64,000 bases of DNA from contig JASANH010000715.1 of assembly GCA_030248295.1 (NCBI GenBank), positions 186,001 through 250,000 of the forward strand, given 5' to 3'. Within the stretch, counting starts at the first letter, position 1. Every line of letters starts with the position of its first letter. Shown here piece by piece: positions 24,365 through 63,948 of this stretch. The notes under the pieces were generated by a model. It searched no databases. It was given only the letters and a program-made list of their open reading frames with translations, and was not told the DNA's origin. The DNA comes from Mesodorylaimus sp. YZB2_4. Lineage: Eukaryota > Nematoda > Enoplea > Dorylaimida > Dorylaimidae. Made by a program: the position numbers and the translations under genes.

Positions 24365-25816
24365 TCACTTTTTCTTGCCAGCAGTCGCCTTGGCGCTTTT
24401 TGGACGAACGCTGTCCATCTTGCTCACGAGGCTGGCTTCGACGCTTTGGTCCATGAAGTCGCGCGGAGTAGACGTGCCGGCGTGGACGCTCTCTGATTTC
24501 AGACGGATCGACGCCTTGTTCGTGTGCACACCCGCCTTGATGACAGATTTTTCTTTCATCTTCGCAGCTTCAGCCTGACGTTTGCTTTGCTTGCGCTTGA
24601 CAGTCAGGACAGCCGCGACGACGATGACCAGCAGAAGGAAGCAGGCGCACACGATCAATACGATTGCCCATATCGGGAACTCGGACGACGAGTCTGGGCC
24701 ATCAGTGACCGGACCCGCAGCATATGGCGCAGAGGGTGACTTCTTTGATTCCTGAGACATCGATCGCTCAGAGGATGACTTCGGCTCGCTGGGAGAGGTC
24801 TGGGTTTCCGCTCCCTGCTCAGAGTCTGATGCAGAAGGTCCGGAAGCGAGTCCTGGCGTCGTTGCTTCCACATCTGACTGGGGCGATGTCTGCGTCGTCA
24901 TGTTCACTGTCGACGATGGGGACGCTGGGGTCGCTCCGCATTCGATTTCTTTTCCTGGGCAATTTTCGTACACCCATTTCACCTCGGGAGGTCCAGTCCG
25001 CTTGACCACCACTTTCTTTCCTGGATCGACGCTTTGACAGTTTCCAGCTTCCCACTGGTATTTCTCGCACGTGGCCTCGCACTGGTTCTCGCTGCATGGA
25101 CCTGGAGTTCCCCTTTGTATGCAATATTCGCTGCCGGGGAACAGACCTGCAGCGCACTTTTGCTCGTTTTCGAAAAAGCAAATTTCTTTGCACCCATACG
25201 CGTCGAGGATTTTGCCATAGACAGTGGGGGCCACTTTCTCCTCCTCATCAAACGAGAAGATTCGCTTGCGGTCGCCGGTGATGGAAGCGAGAAAATTCAT
25301 GTCATGATCCTCGACCCCTGCTCCGCAGACGCTGTAGATCTCTGCCCCTTTATTTCGCAATTGTTGCGCGACACTTTGCAGTTGGCCACGATAAAACAAT
25401 GGTACGATTTCCCAGCCCGAGTGGAAGAAGATGACGATTTTTTTTGCGTTTGGACGAGCATTGACCAAAACTTTGTCCCTGACCACTTCGAATGCCACGT
25501 GTGATTCGGAGCCGCGGGTTATTTGTTCGATCTTTGCTTGTCGAACTTGATTCGGGTCAGCCGTGAAAGGAAGAACAATCTCTACTGACTCCGCGTATAT
25601 GACGACGGCGACGCGGGCGTGCTCTGGGCCAATTTGAATCCTTTCTGGCAGCCCTTTGATGACTTTGGCTTCTTCGAAGAACAAATGATTCTTGCCGGGA
25701 TTGTCGGACGCGTCCATGATGCAGATGATGTCGACCGGATTGGCGCTTTGGTGTTGATTCGACAGCAGAGGACGCAGCACCAAGACCAGAAACAAGAACG
25801 CAGTCAACGAGGCCAT
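24365..25816 (-). CDS. Type I membrane protein with a von Willebrand A domain
   Basis: Single exon. The frame opens at 25918, but the ATG at 25816 is preferred because it starts a proper signal peptide (MASLTAFLFLVLVL..). The protein is 483 residues. The vWA fold is seen from NPVDIICIMDASDNPG, through the central VAVVIYAESVEIVLPF, to KKIVIFFHSGWE and later strands. The metal site is altered: the usual D-x-S-x-S reads D-A-S-D-N, so metal binding may be weakened. A Cys-rich segment follows (CKEICFFENEQKCAAG through CPGKEIEC), then a long Ser/Pro/Thr mucin-like stalk, one membrane helix (IWAIVLIVCACFLLLVIVVA) and a basic cytoplasmic tail. In the family, vWA domains bind ligands or matrix, and the ligand here is unknown. 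A 5' duplicate lies downstream. GC content is high for the region. Confidence 0.85.
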   Translation of the reverse strand: MASLTAFLFLVLVLRPLLSNQHQSANPVDIICIMDASDNPGKNHLFFEEAKVIKGLPERIQIGPEHARVAVVIYAESVEIVLPFTADPNQVRQAKIEQITRGSESHVAFEVVRDKVLVNARPNAKKIVIFFHSGWEIVPLFYRGQLQSVAQQLRNKGAEIYSVCGAGVEDHDMNFLASITGDRKRIFSFDEEEKVAPTVYGKILDAYGCKEICFFENEQKCAAGLFPGSEYCIQRGTPGPCSENQCEATCEKYQWEAGNCQSVDPGKKVVVKRTGPPEVKWVYENCPGKEIECGATPASPSSTVNMTTQTSPQSDVEATTPGLASGPSASDSEQGAETQTSPSEPKSSSERSMSQESKKSPSAPYAAGPVTDGPDSSSEFPIWAIVLIVCACFLLLVIVVAAVLTVKRKQSKRQAEAAKMKEKSVIKAGVHTNKASIRLKSESVHAGTSTPRDFMDQSVEASLVSKMDSVRPKSAKATAGKKK

Positions 25817-26337
25817 TTTTTCAGATTTCTCTTCAGAAGTTTTCTTTGACAAGGCAAACTTGAAAGACAAAGCAGCGCTAGGCGTGAACTTCGTGAAAGA
25901 CAAGGCGATGCGAGACAACCGCGCAGGTAGACAGCTTAGCTGGAAATGAGAGCCAGGCGCACAGGCTTGGAGGAACTGTGAAGAGAGCAGTGTAACGTTA
26001 AAGTTGACTCGCCTGTCCTGTGCCTGCTAGAACCAAGGAAATCTCTTGGGCGAGATGCAAAAATGGTAGTTTTGTGGAGTGTAATGCACCGAGCTTGGTC
26101 ACTGCAATGTGATGCGTTTGGGGAGAATGGATAGAACGGGACGCATATCAGCCAGGCTTGGCATTGTATTTTTTAGATCATCTCAATTGAAATTATGTGC
26201 TGCTGATAATTCATTGCAGATATCATCCGACAATCTACTGCGCTTTGGTACTGCAGTTACTGCATCGTGTATTATTGCTCTTTCTATGAAATGCGTTGAA
26301 CTTAATTTTCCAATAGATAGAAAACCGGATCGCAAAA

Positions 26338-36598: not shown

Positions 36599-36883
36599 GT
36601 ACTGGTGAAATTACTTTAATAAGGGTATGTCCTGAATGAGTACCAATTAAAAATTAAAAATCAGTTCATGATTGAATCAAAAATCACAATTTCAAATACA
36701 TTCACCACTTGACCACATGACAGCATCTAACTTAGCCATTCATCATCACAAACCCTTAAACCCAAATTTTGATCATCGTGAATCGAGAAAAATGAATTAG
36801 CGAAAATAATCTAAAGCATCATATTCAACACATTCACTACAGTTTAAACACAAGCGAAAAAAACGCGTAATTTGTGGCTCTGA

Positions 36884-36973
36884 CGAATCGAATCGCTGAA
36901 GCGAACATCGAGTTATCGCTGTCTCAAATCGAGTTTGCAACAATAACTGTCAAAAAATGTAGCGATCGATCGC
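36884..36973 (-). promoter_or_regulatory. SECIS element of selenoprotein T
   Basis: In the 3' region of the SelT gene, about 50 bases after the stop. Helix I pairs 36961-36966 (ATCGCT) with 36892-36897 (AGCGAT), with more pairs below. After an internal loop comes the quartet UGAC (36952-36949) against CGAU (36910-36907), giving U-U, G-A, A-G and C-C. Helix II is 11 bp: AGTTATTGTTG (36948-36938) with CAGCGATAACT (36921-36911), including two G-U pairs. AAA (36936-36934) is at the usual distance of about 13 from the UGA. It is followed by a CTC/GAG mini-stem, so the element is form 2. All parts were read directly from the sequence. Confidence 0.88.
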
Positions 36974-37020
36974 CAACGCCAATTCCCGTCCGCACGTACC
37001 TTGAGAATGAATTTACCTTC

Positions 37021-38000
37021 TTAGAGGATCGTCGCACTGCCGCCGCCGCTCATTTTCATTTGACTGTCCAAAATTTGCAAAAGCTCCGGTGGAGAAGGAA
37101 TGCGACCAGCTTCCAATTTCGACCAAACAGGCACAGCTAAAAAATAAATAAGCAAATTAGCTTAATCTTTAAAAGTTTTCTGGACGCTTTAAGCGTCCTA
37201 AGGAGTCTCATTATCTTTGCTGGGCTACACCTTGAAATTTATAAAATATCTACTTACAATTCAAAGAAATTTCAAAAGCGCCGGTAGAAATTAATTGGCC
37301 TTCAATTGCATTACTAAGAAAAAATGTCATCATACATGCGTAAATCTAAAAAAAGATTCATTTGGTTTTTTAGCATTTATAACTGAATAAGATTTACTTT
37401 ATTTTGTAGAGCCCATTGAAAAATGCCGGGTGTCTGGATACCGATCGTAGTGAAAGGGTCGAAACCGAATAAAATGGCCACGATAAGACCAAGTTTGACA
37501 ACGCTAAGCACTTGAGCCAGCATTGCCTTGTGCGACGGCGGGGGATAATTGTCGCCTTCGATAGTCATCGCGGGATAACGTTCTTGAATTACGCGACTGA
37601 ACTCTTCGAAGACGCGACGATAACCTCAGGAATAACTGAAAACAAGAAACAGTGTTCCCTGATTATTCAATTCGAAGAAATCATTTGAAAGTTGAAAAAA
37701 ACATTTTCTACTATTTAGAGCAACTGAAAGAACATTTAAAAACTGGCGGAATTCAGAAAACAAACAATGGAAATCTTACCAAAACAAAAACTTGAGTGTC
37801 GGTCCACCCATTCTCATCTTCATTCTCGGTTGCGGTACGGAATTTTTTAAGTCGGCAAAACTTTCTTCGCGTTCTTCCATGCGATTCTGTTCGGACGACG
37901 CGTGCGCCATTTGATTATTGGTTTTGTCCGACATTAAATCTCGCCAAGACAAAAATACGGCCACGGCAATTACCGCCGCGGCGGCCGCCGACCGAATCAT
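37021..38000 (-). CDS. SELENOT: Selenoprotein T with UGA-encoded selenocysteine
   Basis: Four minus-strand exons, 38000-37780, 37635-37398, 37345-37258 and 37136-37021, join in consistent phase to give 220 residues. The redox motif is C-Y-S-U-G-Y-R-R-V-F-E-E. The Cys codon is split by intron 1, and U is an in-frame TGA at 37628-37626. Vertebrate SelT has C-V-S-U-G-Y-R-R-V-F-E-E at this place. Further family landmarks are ERYPAMTIEGDNYP, the membrane hairpin (VVKLGLIVAILFGFDPF), GIFQWALQNK, FFLSNAIEGQLISTGAFEI and VPVWSKLEAGRIPSPPELLQ. The N-terminus has a hydrophobic Ala-rich signal anchor. SelT is an ER thioredoxin-like oxidoreductase, abundant in secretory and neuroendocrine cells. The protein is somewhat longer than usual at the N-terminus. 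A SECIS follows the stop. Standard gene callers would stop at the TGA. Confidence 0.92.
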
Positions 38001-56900: not shown

Positions 56901-59900
56901 TTGCCCGAAGAAGAGCAGGGGAGTGGGGATGACAGGGACCTTGTATAGCTGACAAGTGTGTAGTTGTGGTGCATCGATCTATTTAGGCTCTGGCGTCTCC
57001 TCGTCAATCGACGGCGATGCTTGCGACGACTGGTTCGTTATCTCCAGTTCCAGTGCCGCCATTTTGCGCTCCATCGTTTTTCACTGTGGATATGTCGAAA
57101 ATGAAATCGGCGAGTGAAATTGGGAAATTTTCGTCTCGCACCCCGCCCTCGTCGTCGTTGGCCAGTGCGTCGACGATGGCTGCCATTTCGTCGAGTACGC
57201 TCAATGTAACTTTATCGTCGATGATGAAAGATACGTCGTTGGAACAAGATAAAGTGAGAAGTACGTCGAGTGCGAGCCCGCCCAAAAGCGAGTATAGTTC
57301 GATGGAGAAAAGTGCCAGCGATTTTTCCAGTTCGGATCATCGATCGATTGCGTCAATCAATGCGGCCAGATTGGTAAGTCGGATGGAGTGCCGTGTGATT
57401 GTGAGGTTTCGCTGCAGTAAGACGGGTGAAGGTGAAGAATTCAAATGTAGAAAATAGCGGGAAATTTAAATATGCGAATTCGCACTCCTGTTTCAGCAAA
57501 TAAGAGATTTTTTTAGGGCACAGGCAAAACCACTCCCTCTCGCATCCCGTTACCGAAGAAAGCCAGCAACGTGACGCTTCCAGTTCCGTTGCCGAAGAAG
57601 GCGAGTAGTGCGTGCGATTTGAGTTTGCCGATCAGACGAGTGACCACGCCCAGTCAGCCGAGCATAAGTACGAGCAGTTCGAGTTCGGGTCCGAGTTATC
57701 GAATGAAAAGACCGCAGGCTTTGTACATCGCTTCGAATAATAGCGCGGCTGGATTCGCTGCCAATCGCAAACCAAGAGGTGAGCACGCTTGAAATAGGGG
57801 TGAGGGGGATCTGCAAAGTCTTGTATGTTTGAATTAGGACTTTGGCGGGAATGTAGGAACCTTGAATTAGACCTCCATATGCACTGGTGATGACACCTTA
57901 GCCTCGGATAGTGCATTGGGGTTATGATGGTGAGTGTACAGTGGGCGTGGTGTAAGGGAGAGTCCTACCTATTGCTATTGCTAGTTACTCTGTGGCCAAA
58001 CACTTACCAGTGCACTTGAACGGCAGAGGACATGTGAACAAAGAACGATAAAACGAACTGAATGTCTTTAAAATCACCTGAGAAACAAGACGTCTGAACG
58101 CATCGAATAAACCAGGAACAATATTACTGGGCACCTTGTCAGTGTTCCAATAATTCTTTAAAACGGAATATTCAAAGCATTGCGCGTAGGCGCTCTTGAA
58201 AACAACCGGTATTTCGAGAAAGTGCTCTTTGACTAACCGCTCGCTAAAGCGTCTCCCTGAGTCCGAAGTGTGGATGTAGCGATTATTCGGATAGTAAGCA
58301 TGATCGTGGTAATATTTGTGTAACTGAATTCCTTTTAACTGCTTAAGGCGTGCCTCCAACGTAGAAAAAACCAAATTCTGCCATAGCCCCTTCATAAGGC
58401 TTGCACCAGTCGGTTAGAATTGATCGGACAGTAAGCTTTTGCACACTTTCAAGATATTGGATGAGATTAGAATGGGTTGGTGACCAAGCGCAGCATCCAT
58501 ATTCGAGCTTCGGGAGGACACACTGCGTGTAGACCACTTTCAGAATTTTACTTGCGAACTTCCCGAACTTTCTTCTGAACGCCCCGATCATCCTTGCTGA
58601 TTTTGCAATTTCGTGACAGTGCTCTGCGAAATGCATGCTCGAAGATAGCGTAGCCCCCAAATACGATATCGCATCAGATAACTGAATCGGTCAACGACAC
58701 AAGCGAATCTGCGGGATTTGGCGAGGGGGCTTCGAATCCAAACGAAAAATGCAAGCTCGCGTTTTGTCAGCATTAAATTCAAGCTCCATGTCCTGAATCT
58801 TGTTCTCGATAAAATTGATTGCTTTCTGTAGTGGTTCTTCCAAACTCGACACTGAGCATCCAGGCGATAAAAGAACAAGGTCGTCGGCGTAAGCTTGCAA
58901 AAGAAACTTCGGGAAGGCTCCACAAAATTTTACTAGCAGCGAATCAATCAGCGCCACGAACAGAATTGGTCCCAGGACAGATCCCTGCGGCACACCAGAC
59001 CCTACTGGAACGGCGTGAGAAATTGCATTTCCCACGATAGTGAACTGGGTGCGACCTTCGAGATATGGAGCCAGCCACCGCAGAAGACGAGGTTGAAGAT
59101 GATGATGCTGTTCCAGCACTTCTAACAGTCTGTTATGCTGGACACGGTCGGACACTTTTTTCAAAGTCAAAGAACACTCCACCATCACATTGAGACGTCG
59201 AATGACGTGGGTGAAAGCCATGTTGGTTTGGAGAAAGCTGCAATTGAGATCTTAAAAGGCGTTGTACGTGCTTCTCCATAACTTTCGGTAATATCTGCAG
59301 CAGAGTAGTAGTAGAGCAGACCCTTGGTCAATGTTGAATGTACTGTACGTAGCCAGGGTCACGCGCGCAGTCGATGGTGCCCACAAACGAATGTGAAGGT
59401 GAAAGGCATGCTAGGATTTTGTGGGTTGGAGACTGAACATGGCAGGCTAATGTTTGACGTCTTCAGGTAACCGCGTGCTCCGTCGTCCTCATTCCTATCA
59501 CGATGCGGCTGTGGAAGGTGGCGTGGCGTTCGGTGTGCCGTTCTCTGGTGCTGGTCGCAAGCCGAAGTTGGGTGAGTCCGGATTGTCCCGTAATTGTGCA
59601 GGATAGTGACGAGTGTTATTTCAGGCGCGCCACCGCCCTTGAATATTGGAAGGCCATGCTCGTACCAGGATCCAACTGTGGCCAACAGTTCACAAACATT
59701 GAACGATTTGCCAATTACTCCGACTAGAAAATCGTTCAATTTTTTCGCCTCCGATTTGCCATCGTCGTTTCAGAGCAAGTAAGTAGCGGCAGTAGGAGGG
59801 AGCGGAGGGCAGTAGGTGGGAGAGAGTGGGCGTTGGATGGGTAGGAATCTGTGAAGGATGCAGAAATTCGTGCCGAATAGGTGATGAGGAGGCCAGACTG

Positions 59901-62706: not shown

Positions 62707-63948
62707 TCAAAGTTCTGTAATTGGTACAGGATATTGTTGCAAAACACGAAAACTACCTTGATTCGATACACTAGGTGTGGAAATAAGTCTCGCCGATCCA
62801 CAGTCGGACATGAGACCACTGTAGTAGCCCGATGTACTGCACGTGGCGTAATGATTTTCATTATCTTCGTATAAAAATCGACCATTTTCGCCAGGATAGT
62901 CACTATATTTGATAGAATATGGTGGAAATCCCGATTCGCTAAGTTTTCTTCGATCGGCTAGCAATCTCCGCACGCAATAAGTATCTTGGTCATTTTGACT
63001 GGCCTCGAGCACGACTGGGATTGGTTTAGTATATCGACATAATTCGGGCAGTCCGGGTGGTGGCGAGTATCGATACTGCAGGGGCGAGACACCATTGTAG
63101 GACGAGGGGGTGCAACAAGCGCACAATAGTTTATGTCGATATCGAAGACAAATAATGATCACAACTGTCAGGACTGATAATGAGGCGAATACTGTTGCCG
63201 CGATAAGAATAATATTTATGGAATTTTTCCACGTGGATGATTGACAATCTTCAAAATCAGGTTCTCCTTCAATTTCGCCTTCTTCTAAATCTTGTACCGA
63301 TTTTAGACTTTCTAATGCGCGTCCACGAAGATGATCGGGTCCTTGACAAATGGCTCCATCAGGTAGCAGTTTTGTGTTTTTTGTGGGGGAATAGATTTTT
63401 CGTAAATTTGATCCAATCCACGATCCAAATTCGCAATCGCATATCCACGGATTCCAGCGGAGATCTAATTCCTCTAAACGCGTCCATGGTAAAAGGGATT
63501 TTGGAAGAGTACTAAAATTATTTCCATACAAATAAACACGACGAAGTGGTAAAAATCGATCATTCTTCTCTTCATATTCGTCGGAAGTGAATTCGAACGC
63601 CATTTGATCGATAAATGATAAAAATCGATTTTCAGTGATCATTAATAATTCCAAATTCGATAATCCACTGAAAGCGTTCACTTCGATCCGTCGCAATTGA
63701 TTACATCGACTGATAATTAGCTGACGTAACTTGGGCAAACCTTCGAAAGTGCTGGTTGGTATGTCTTGCAGCAAATGATTCTCACTGATCGATAATGATC
63801 GTAAATCGGTCAAAGGACGAAAACTTATTGTTGGCACGCGACGTATGCGATTTGAATCGAAGCTAAGCAATTGCAGAGAACGTAATCCGTGAAAAGCACG
63901 CTCGTCCACTGTCTCGATCACGTTGCCAGCCAAGTTCAGAGTGACGAG
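62707..63948 (-). CDS. LRR transmembrane protein, 3' exon (partial gene)
   Basis: This exon runs from an acceptor (TTTTTTAG|CTC) at 63948 to a stop at 62707, 413 residues. Earlier exons lie outside the window. Typical leucine-rich repeats are seen (LVTLNLAGNVIETVDERAF, LRSLQLLSFDSNRIRRVP, LRSLSISENHLLQDIP, LELLMITENRFL). A C-terminal LRR cap follows (LDLRWNPWICDCEFGSW with two later Cys), then one membrane helix (INIILIAATVFASLSVLTVV) and a cytoplasmic tail rich in Tyr and Ser (YNGVSPLQYRYSPP). In animals such proteins act in cell adhesion and neural wiring. The family member could not be named. A further splice near VSNQG is possible, so the last residues are uncertain. Confidence 0.85.
   Translation of the reverse strand, partial: LVTLNLAGNVIETVDERAFHGLRSLQLLSFDSNRIRRVPTISFRPLTDLRSLSISENHLLQDIPTSTFEGLPKLRQLIISRCNQLRRIEVNAFSGLSNLELLMITENRFLSFIDQMAFEFTSDEYEEKNDRFLPLRRVYLYGNNFSTLPKSLLPWTRLEELDLRWNPWICDCEFGSWIGSNLRKIYSPTKNTKLLPDGAICQGPDHLRGRALESLKSVQDLEEGEIEGEPDFEDCQSSTWKNSINIILIAATVFASLSVLTVVIIICLRYRHKLLCACCTPSSYNGVSPLQYRYSPPPGLPELCRYTKPIPVVLEASQNDQDTYCVRRLLADRRKLSESGFPPYSIKYSDYPGENGRFLYEDNENHYATCSTSGYYSGLMSDCGSARLISTPSVSNQGSFRVLQQYPVPITEL

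What the first reader, a model, noticed from the sequence alone, without database searches (positions are those of the whole stretch)
36884..38000. Selenocysteine-encoding SelT with a canonical form-2 SECIS in a nematode-like genome
The SelT gene keeps a TGA at 37628-37626 exactly where vertebrate SelT has Sec (C-x-S-U-G-Y-R-R-V-F-E-E). A full SECIS (quartet, 11-bp helix II, AAA, mini-stem, helix I) sits about 50 nt after the stop. C. elegans SelT homologues have Cys here, and its only known selenoprotein is thioredoxin reductase. The lineage therefore keeps a wider selenoproteome, and ordinary annotation would truncate or skip this exon.
Basis: partly seen in the sequence, partly recalled or inferred. 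Interest (0 to 1): 0.9.

Follow-up and report, generated by a model that had tools for sequence, protein, structure and literature searches.

The report
Nematode selenoprotein T using selenocysteine
This roundworm gene appears to read a stop codon as the rare amino acid selenocysteine, and its genome carries key decoding machinery and a dozen other such genes, although the laboratory worm C. elegans is known for having just one.

Summary
A four-exon selenoprotein T gene lies on the minus strand (38000-37021), with TGA at 37628-37626 in ...FCYS-U-GYRRVFEEF.... A SECIS fold follows at 36981-36875: 11-bp helix II, AAA, mini-stem, long helix I, z -3.6. One departure from "canonical": the base before the quartet is U, where A or sometimes G is usual, and Rfam's SECIS_1 does not report the element. 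The genome (145 Mb) has 133 nematode-type cuticle-collagen domain matches, tRNA-Sec, eEFSec (40, 68), SBP2 (70) and a selenophosphate synthetase that is itself Sec-type (56). Thirteen genes have TGA at a family's Sec site and a SECIS-like hit downstream: SelT, SelW x3, TrxR x2, SelS, SelL (two TGAs), SPS2, GPx x4 (56). SBP2 keeps the SID domain, which C. elegans is reported (recalled) to lack. SelT is thus an ordinary member of a known family. What stands out is a broad selenoproteome in a nematode, which places selenoprotein collapse inside the phylum. No RNA or protein evidence was available.

The parts
37780..38000 (-). SelT exon 1: start ATG, hydrophobic N-terminus, ends in the first two bases of the Cys codon of C-Y-S-U
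   Evidence: splice model and translation
37398..37635 (-). SelT exon 2: carries the Sec codon and the ...GYRRVFEEF... stretch
   Evidence: Pfam Rdx 51.5 bits on the stitched protein
37626..37628 (-). in-frame TGA, read as selenocysteine (codon 77)
37258..37345 (-). SelT exon 3
37021..37136 (-). SelT exon 4 with the TAA stop (37023-37021)
36875..36981 (-). SECIS element downstream of the stop, form 2 (mini-stem); core 36952-36908 (UGAC ... AAA ... CGAU), helix I at its base; pre-quartet base U
   Evidence: not reported by Rfam SECIS_1
36615..36620 (-). ATTAAA, possible polyadenylation signal; would leave the SECIS inside the 3' UTR
   Evidence: motif only

Best explanation
This is a working selenoprotein T gene of a nematode that has kept a large, ancestral-type selenoproteome. 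In the mRNA the SECIS hairpin is bound by SBP2. SBP2 brings in eEFSec with Sec-tRNA(UCA), and the ribosome reads the UGA of the C-Y-S-U redox motif as selenocysteine. Selenium reaches the tRNA through a selenophosphate synthetase that is itself a selenoprotein. The protein is then an ER-type thioredoxin-fold oxidoreductase like vertebrate SELENOT. Shown here: the gene, the TGA, the SECIS fold, and genes for the four machinery parts just named (SBP2, eEFSec, tRNA-Sec, selenophosphate synthetase). Inferred: that UGA is decoded as Sec in vivo, the localisation, and the redox function.
For: Only SelT in the genome that a protein search finds: all 3 matches at E<=10 are this gene's own exons, so no Cys twin was seen. 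TGA at the family's Sec site and an open frame beyond it. Stable SECIS fold downstream. tRNA-Sec 76.4 bits (cut-off 47), anticodon UCA. eEFSec with two eEFSec-specific Pfam domains (124 and 108 bits). SBP2 whose best PDB match is human SBP2, over both the SID core (i-E 1.2e-5) and the RNA-binding domain (i-E 1.1e-24). Twelve further genes with TGA at the Sec site; 13 of 13 have a SECIS hit 66-2264 nt downstream, against 3 hits in 208,062 background strand-bases. Across the 13 SECIS the helix II arms form 129 of 143 standard pairs; with 3' arms swapped between genes the mean is 75.7, the maximum 105, and 0 of 2000 swaps reach 129 (partly circular, because the scanner selects for pairing). The three SelW paralogues show dN 0.12-0.16 against dS 0.36-0.68 over 54 codons downstream of the TGA, as expected if that part is translated.
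Against: No RNA, ribosome or mass-spectrometry data. The SECIS has U before the quartet, where A (or G) is usual (PMC2375036 passages), and Rfam SECIS_1 does not report it even at E<=10, so its efficiency is unknown. An in-frame alternative acceptor exists at 37596; using it would drop the TGA, but also the C-Y-S-U-G-Y-R-R motif region (39 nt). SepSecS and PSTK were not searched. No cuticle-collagen match lies on SelT's own contig C138; its link to the nematode genome rests on five short repeat pieces shared with loci of C75 and C8.
Confidence: 0.92

Rival explanations
1. A decaying SelT: the Sec machinery serves other genes, but this SECIS, with its U before the quartet, no longer works, so SelT is a truncated 76-residue product or a pseudogene.
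For: Pre-quartet base U in 1 of 13 SECIS, A in 8 and G in 4; Rfam SECIS_1 does not report it; two of three background scanner hits also have T there.
Against: The frame is intact for 143 codons after the TGA and the protein fits the family profile; of the 13 helices II only this one and one SelW are fully paired over all 11 positions; fold z -3.6; no second SelT was found.
Confidence: 0.04
2. The TGA is removed by splicing, and a Sec-free SelT isoform is the real product.
For: One in-frame AG acceptor at 37596 would skip 39 nt.
Against: The acceptor used in my model is ...CTTGTTTTCAG; the alternative (GAAGAGTTCAG) lacks a pyrimidine tract and deletes the redox motif (sequence); the other 7 of 8 AG sites listed downstream of the TGA shift the frame. 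A SECIS would then have no purpose.
Confidence: 0.02
3. The SelT contig or several of the Sec genes are contamination from a host, prey or food organism, and the nematode itself has a small selenoproteome.
For: The assembly is unnamed and in 1067 contigs; only 6 of the 15 contigs that hold Sec genes or machinery also carry a cuticle-collagen match; the TrxR matches what I take to be mammalian TrxR1 entries (485 bits) better than the entry that I take to be Brugia TrxR (7p0x, 457 bits) (organisms recalled); an eL8 fragment also matches entries that I take to be vertebrate best.
Against: Both TrxR, one SelW, SelL, tRNA-Sec, eEFSec and SBP2 do share contigs with cuticle-collagen matches; the window shares repeats with C75 and C8, which carry collagens (5 BLAST pieces against 12 loci); one tRNA-Sec over cut-off, one eEFSec, one SPS locus and one SBP2 were found, not two sets.
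Confidence: 0.03

Closest known systems
Selenoprotein T (SELENOT), Rdx family (Pfam PF10262)
   Same: C-x-S-U motif followed by G-Y-R-R-V-F-E-E, hydrophobic insert, C-terminal STGAFEI..VPVWSKLE stretch (human sequence recalled); Rdx profile over cut-off; SECIS after the stop
   Different: From a nematode, where the C. elegans copies are Cys (recalled); SECIS has U before the quartet
Invertebrate large selenoproteomes (sponge to amphioxus; PMC3473315)
   Same: SelT, SelW, TrxR, SelS, SelL, SPS and GPx as Sec proteins are all in its Table 1 (passages seen)
   Different: Those six animals are marine and none is an ecdysozoan; that paper describes massive loss in nematodes and insects
C. elegans / C. 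briggsae single selenoprotein system (PMC2375036, PMC7052493; Taskov 2005 and Otero 2014 not held)
   Same: Same phylum; Sec-TrxR present; a conserved Sec apparatus
   Different: 13 Sec genes found here instead of one; SPS is Sec-type here, whereas PMC4561486 says Cys-type SPS occurs among animals only in nematodes; SBP2 keeps SID (C. elegans reported without it, recalled)

Membership tests
Selenoprotein T | C-x-x-U redox motif at the Rdx position | tested here: met
   F-C-Y-S-TGA-G-Y-R-R-V-F-E-E
Selenoprotein T | Rdx domain over the curated cut-off | tested here: met
   51.5 bits against 22.6 on the stitched protein; the exon-wise genome search with the same profile found only the three SelW loci
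Selenoprotein T | ER signal peptide and membrane-buried hydrophobic insert | not tested
   hydrophobic N-terminus and insert are visible by eye; no predictor run
Eukaryotic SECIS, form 2 | non-Watson-Crick quartet UGAN / NGAN | tested here: met
   UGAC / CGAU
Eukaryotic SECIS, form 2 | unpaired A (or G) just 5' of the quartet | tested here: not met
   U at this place; A mostly, sometimes G per PMC2375036 (passages)
Eukaryotic SECIS, form 2 | helix II of about 11 bp, apical AA(A), extra mini-stem | tested here: met
   11 bp, AAA, 3-bp mini-stem
Eukaryotic SECIS, form 2 | match to Rfam SECIS_1 | tested here: not met
   none at gathering or E<=10; over the genome that model gave 5 hits at E<=10, one over its cut-off: 4 lie just after selenoprotein genes, 1 is false, SelT is not among them
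Sec-decoding organism | tRNA-Sec, eEFSec, SBP2, SPS2 | tested here: met
   40, 68; 39, 47, 70; 38, 42, 56
Sec-decoding organism | SepSecS and PSTK | not tested
SBP2 with Sec-incorporation domain (SID) | SID core LDSS.P..KGKQRE.PK..T..KK.IL.ER upstream of the L7Ae-type RNA-binding domain | tested here: met
   hand-joined exon peptides aligned to human SBP2 508-564 of 7zjw, i-E 1.2e-5; SID boundaries recalled
Nematoda | large family of nematode cuticle collagens (Col_cuticle_N plus Gly-X-Y) | tested here: met
   133 matches; 4 read in detail; that the domain is almost confined to nematodes is recalled

The most novel reading that the evidence does not exclude
This nematode lineage keeps a near-ancestral animal selenoproteome: at least 13 genes, including SelL with a U-G-A-U double Sec, Sec-type SPS2 and four Sec-GPx, served by an SBP2 that still has its SID. 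The SID loss and the A-to-G SECIS change reported (recalled) for Caenorhabditis would then be late events tied to selenoproteome collapse within Nematoda. The SelT SECIS with U before the quartet would be a third, working variant of that position.
Probability: 0.6. Interest if true: 0.55.

Novelty: new member of a known kind. Interest (0 to 1): 0.45.

Why it matters
Nematodes are the textbook case of an animal keeping a whole decoding apparatus for a single UGA codon. A nematode with a broad selenoproteome, Sec-SPS2 and an SBP2 with SID makes it possible to ask which came first inside one phylum: loss of selenoprotein genes, shortening of SBP2, or change of the SECIS. It also suggests that automatic annotation of such worms may miss or truncate many redox genes (not tested here).

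Tried and rejected
Rfam SECIS_1 on the window gave no SECIS, so I wrote a scanner for the SECIS core and measured its background. Rfam SECIS_1 on the genome: 5 hits at E<=10, one over its cut-off; 4 lie just after selenoprotein genes; the fifth (C173) lies inside what reads as a DEG/ENaC channel exon (name recalled) and was rejected. SelK was not found: one match of 19.4 bits, below cut-off 23.3, containing a TAG, with no K-like protein visible; inconclusive. GPx: 7 matches on 6 contigs; four contigs have the Sec TGA, C279 is Cys-type, and C787 is a partial copy whose catalytic exon I could not place. The PDB comparisons of TrxR and eL8 did not favour nematodes; I give them weight only as a caution, because the reference nematodes evolve fast (recalled). 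The PDB gave no SelT structure (two weak Rdx-type relatives) and nothing for the SelL-type protein at E<=1. Automatic stitching failed for two SelW genes and made a wrong join for the third, because it rejects in-frame TGA; it also failed for the TrxR at one exon join and for the first SPS2 exon. I joined those exon peptides by hand. A covariance model of 8 SECIS was built but never used, because it could not be run on this genome. No structure prediction was run.

Literature: ten searches in a library of open-licence PMC papers. Judged by titles and abstract starts, none of the papers listed was about Sec-SelT, Sec-SPS2 or SelL in a nematode; the lists (20 of 30; 25 of 102) were cut, so this is no proof of absence. 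Passages, not whole texts, were seen of PMC3473315, PMC4561486, PMC2375036, PMC6155587, PMC7052493, PMC5330540, PMC4413821 and PMC8914392. The two key papers, Taskov 2005 and Otero 2014, are not held. From recall, Taskov 2005 reports additional selenoproteins in nematodes other than Caenorhabditis and a G-type SECIS, and Otero 2014 reports that C. elegans SBP2 lacks SID.

I lowered the main confidence from 0.93 to 0.92 for the background hits.

Full report
The observation. I read the minus strand of 38700-36500 and rebuilt the gene. Four exons (38000-37780, 37635-37398, 37345-37258, 37136-37021) with GT-AG introns give 220 residues plus a TAA stop, with one in-frame TGA at codon 77, window 37628-37626. 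Around it the protein reads LKFLFCYS-TGA-GYRRVFEEFSRVIQERYP. The frame then runs 143 codons to the TAA and contains the SelT-like stretch STGAFEISLNSVPVWSKLEAG (human SelT recalled). Pfam places the stitched protein in the Rdx family, 51.5 bits against a cut-off of 22.6.

The SECIS. The strand 36985-36870 folds at -39.3 kcal/mol; 200 dinucleotide shuffles average -27.5 and none folds as well (z -3.59). Pair probabilities are 0.98-0.99 for 10 of the 11 pairs of helix II and 0.86-0.87 for the 3-bp mini-stem; helix I is strong at the base. The core is U-UGAC, 11 bp, C-AAA, mini-stem, CGAU. PMC2375036 (passages) says most eukaryotic SECIS have A there and some G. Rfam's SECIS_1 does not report the element. 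My scanner finds 4 distinct cores on the two strands of the window, SelT's being the best (24 against 19, 21, 22).

Does the genome decode Sec? The window lies in a 145,146,385-base genome of 1067 contigs. tRNA-Sec: one match at 76.4 bits (cut-off 47), anticodon UCA; three weaker matches are below cut-off. eEFSec: one match, 592 aa read without an intron, with both eEFSec-specific domains. SBP2: of 9 L7Ae-family matches, L032 is SBP2 and the other 8 read as ribosomal or sno/snRNP proteins (names by recall). Joined SBP2 exon peptides match human SBP2 of 7zjw at E 6.1e-34, in two stretches: the SID core (LDSSVPVLHKGKQRENPKKK.., human 508-564, i-E 1.2e-5) and the RNA-binding domain (i-E 1.1e-24). 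SPS: 4 matches, all on one locus of C283, with TGA at the Sec site (DLRG-TGA-GCKVP) and its own SECIS. SepSecS and PSTK were not searched.

Other selenoproteins. Thirteen genes have TGA at the family's Sec site (the sites by recall of the families): SelT; SelW on C65, C44 and C7; TrxR twice on C1; SelS on C67; a SelL-type protein on C82 with TGA-GGA-GCT-TGA (U-G-A-U); SPS2 on C283; GPx on C424, C539, C145 and C72. All 13 have a SECIS-core hit 66 to 2264 nt downstream of the TGA; SelW on C7 has a second, unlike hit nearer by. The background was 3 distinct hits in 208,062 strand-bases of 18 held loci that I picked as not selenoprotein genes. Pfam puts one stitched member each of SelT, SelW, SelS and TrxR, and two GPx, over the family cut-offs; SelL is placed only by AhpC-TSA_2 (37.7 bits, cut-off 27) plus its double TGA, and SPS2 by AIRS domains plus the selD matches. 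The remaining members were judged by their motifs. The three SelW have dN 0.12-0.16 and dS 0.36-0.68 downstream of the TGA. Of the 13 SECIS, 8 have A, 4 (all GPx) have G and 1 (SelT) has U before the quartet. No second or Cys-type SelT was found. The list is a lower bound: only PF10262, PF00255, PF10961, TIGR00476 and Rfam SECIS_1 were used to look for it, and a model of this genome's own SECIS could not be run on it.

Is it a nematode? 133 Col_cuticle_N matches; the four that I read show AVV.STVAV ... CK.RSRDMW, and those on L045 and L046 continue into a Gly-X-Y stretch in the same frame. The 18S gene on C791 looks enoplean or dorylaimian to me, but that is recall; no rRNA database was available. 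Against: TrxR and an eL8 fragment match PDB entries that I take to be mammalian or other vertebrate better than the nematode entry I could recognise. Of 15 contigs holding Sec genes or machinery, 6 (C1, C3, C8, C44, C75, C82) also carry cuticle-collagen matches. C138, the SelT contig, does not, but the window shares five repeat pieces of 52-101 bases with loci of C75 and C8.

How it works and what it is. The simplest account is standard eukaryotic Sec decoding: SBP2 on the SECIS, eEFSec with Sec-tRNA, UGA read as Sec in the C-Y-S-U motif. The parts are shown; decoding in vivo is inferred. The gene belongs to the SelT family and is not a new kind.

What is known. PMC7052493 and PMC2375036 (passages) give C. 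elegans a single selenoprotein. PMC3473315 (passages) speaks of massive loss in nematodes and lists SelT, SelW, TrxR, SelS, SelL, SPS and GPx as Sec proteins in marine invertebrates. PMC4561486 (passages) says that Cys-type SPS within animals is found only in nematodes; here SPS is Sec-type. PMC2375036 says SelK is Cys in nematodes; here SelK was not found. PMC8914392 (passages) gives GCUG as the filarial TrxR tail; here the two tails read N-C-U-S and K-C-U-S. Taskov 2005 and Otero 2014 were not readable. From recall, the first already reports extra selenoproteins in other nematodes, which lowers the surprise, and the second that C. elegans SBP2 lacks SID, which makes the SID found here the most useful new fact.

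Verdict.

Noticed in passing
L037 (G000:C8:119176-116006, minus): SBP2 gene that keeps a SID core next to its RNA-binding domain; C. elegans SBP2 is reported (recalled) to lack SID.
   Followed up: yes
L010:4898-4909: SelL-type protein with two in-frame TGAs (U-G-A-U) and a SECIS at L010:5431-5475; a family listed for marine invertebrates in PMC3473315.
   Followed up: partly
L034:3160-3162: Selenophosphate synthetase is Sec-type (DLRG-U-GCKVP) with a SECIS at L034:5424-5467; no second SPS locus was found.
   Followed up: yes
L011:4650-4664 and L012:4640-4654: Two thioredoxin reductases on one contig end in N-C-U-S and K-C-U-S instead of G-C-U-G.
   Followed up: no
L049:1911-1909 and L050:924-926: Two GPx genes whose Sec codon sits one base before a GTAAGT donor; the joined codon is Arg in both (U-R-Y-T instead of U-G-L-T, the latter recalled).
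   Followed up: partly
13 SECIS elements: All four GPx SECIS have G before the quartet, eight others have A, SelT alone has U: the base tracks the gene family within one genome.
   Followed up: no
window 58691-59251, minus: Reverse-transcriptase domain (RVT_1, 59.7 bits), part of a retroelement.
   Followed up: no
window 24365-26026 minus; 62707-63948 minus: Long open frames with a von Willebrand A domain and with leucine-rich repeats.
   Followed up: no
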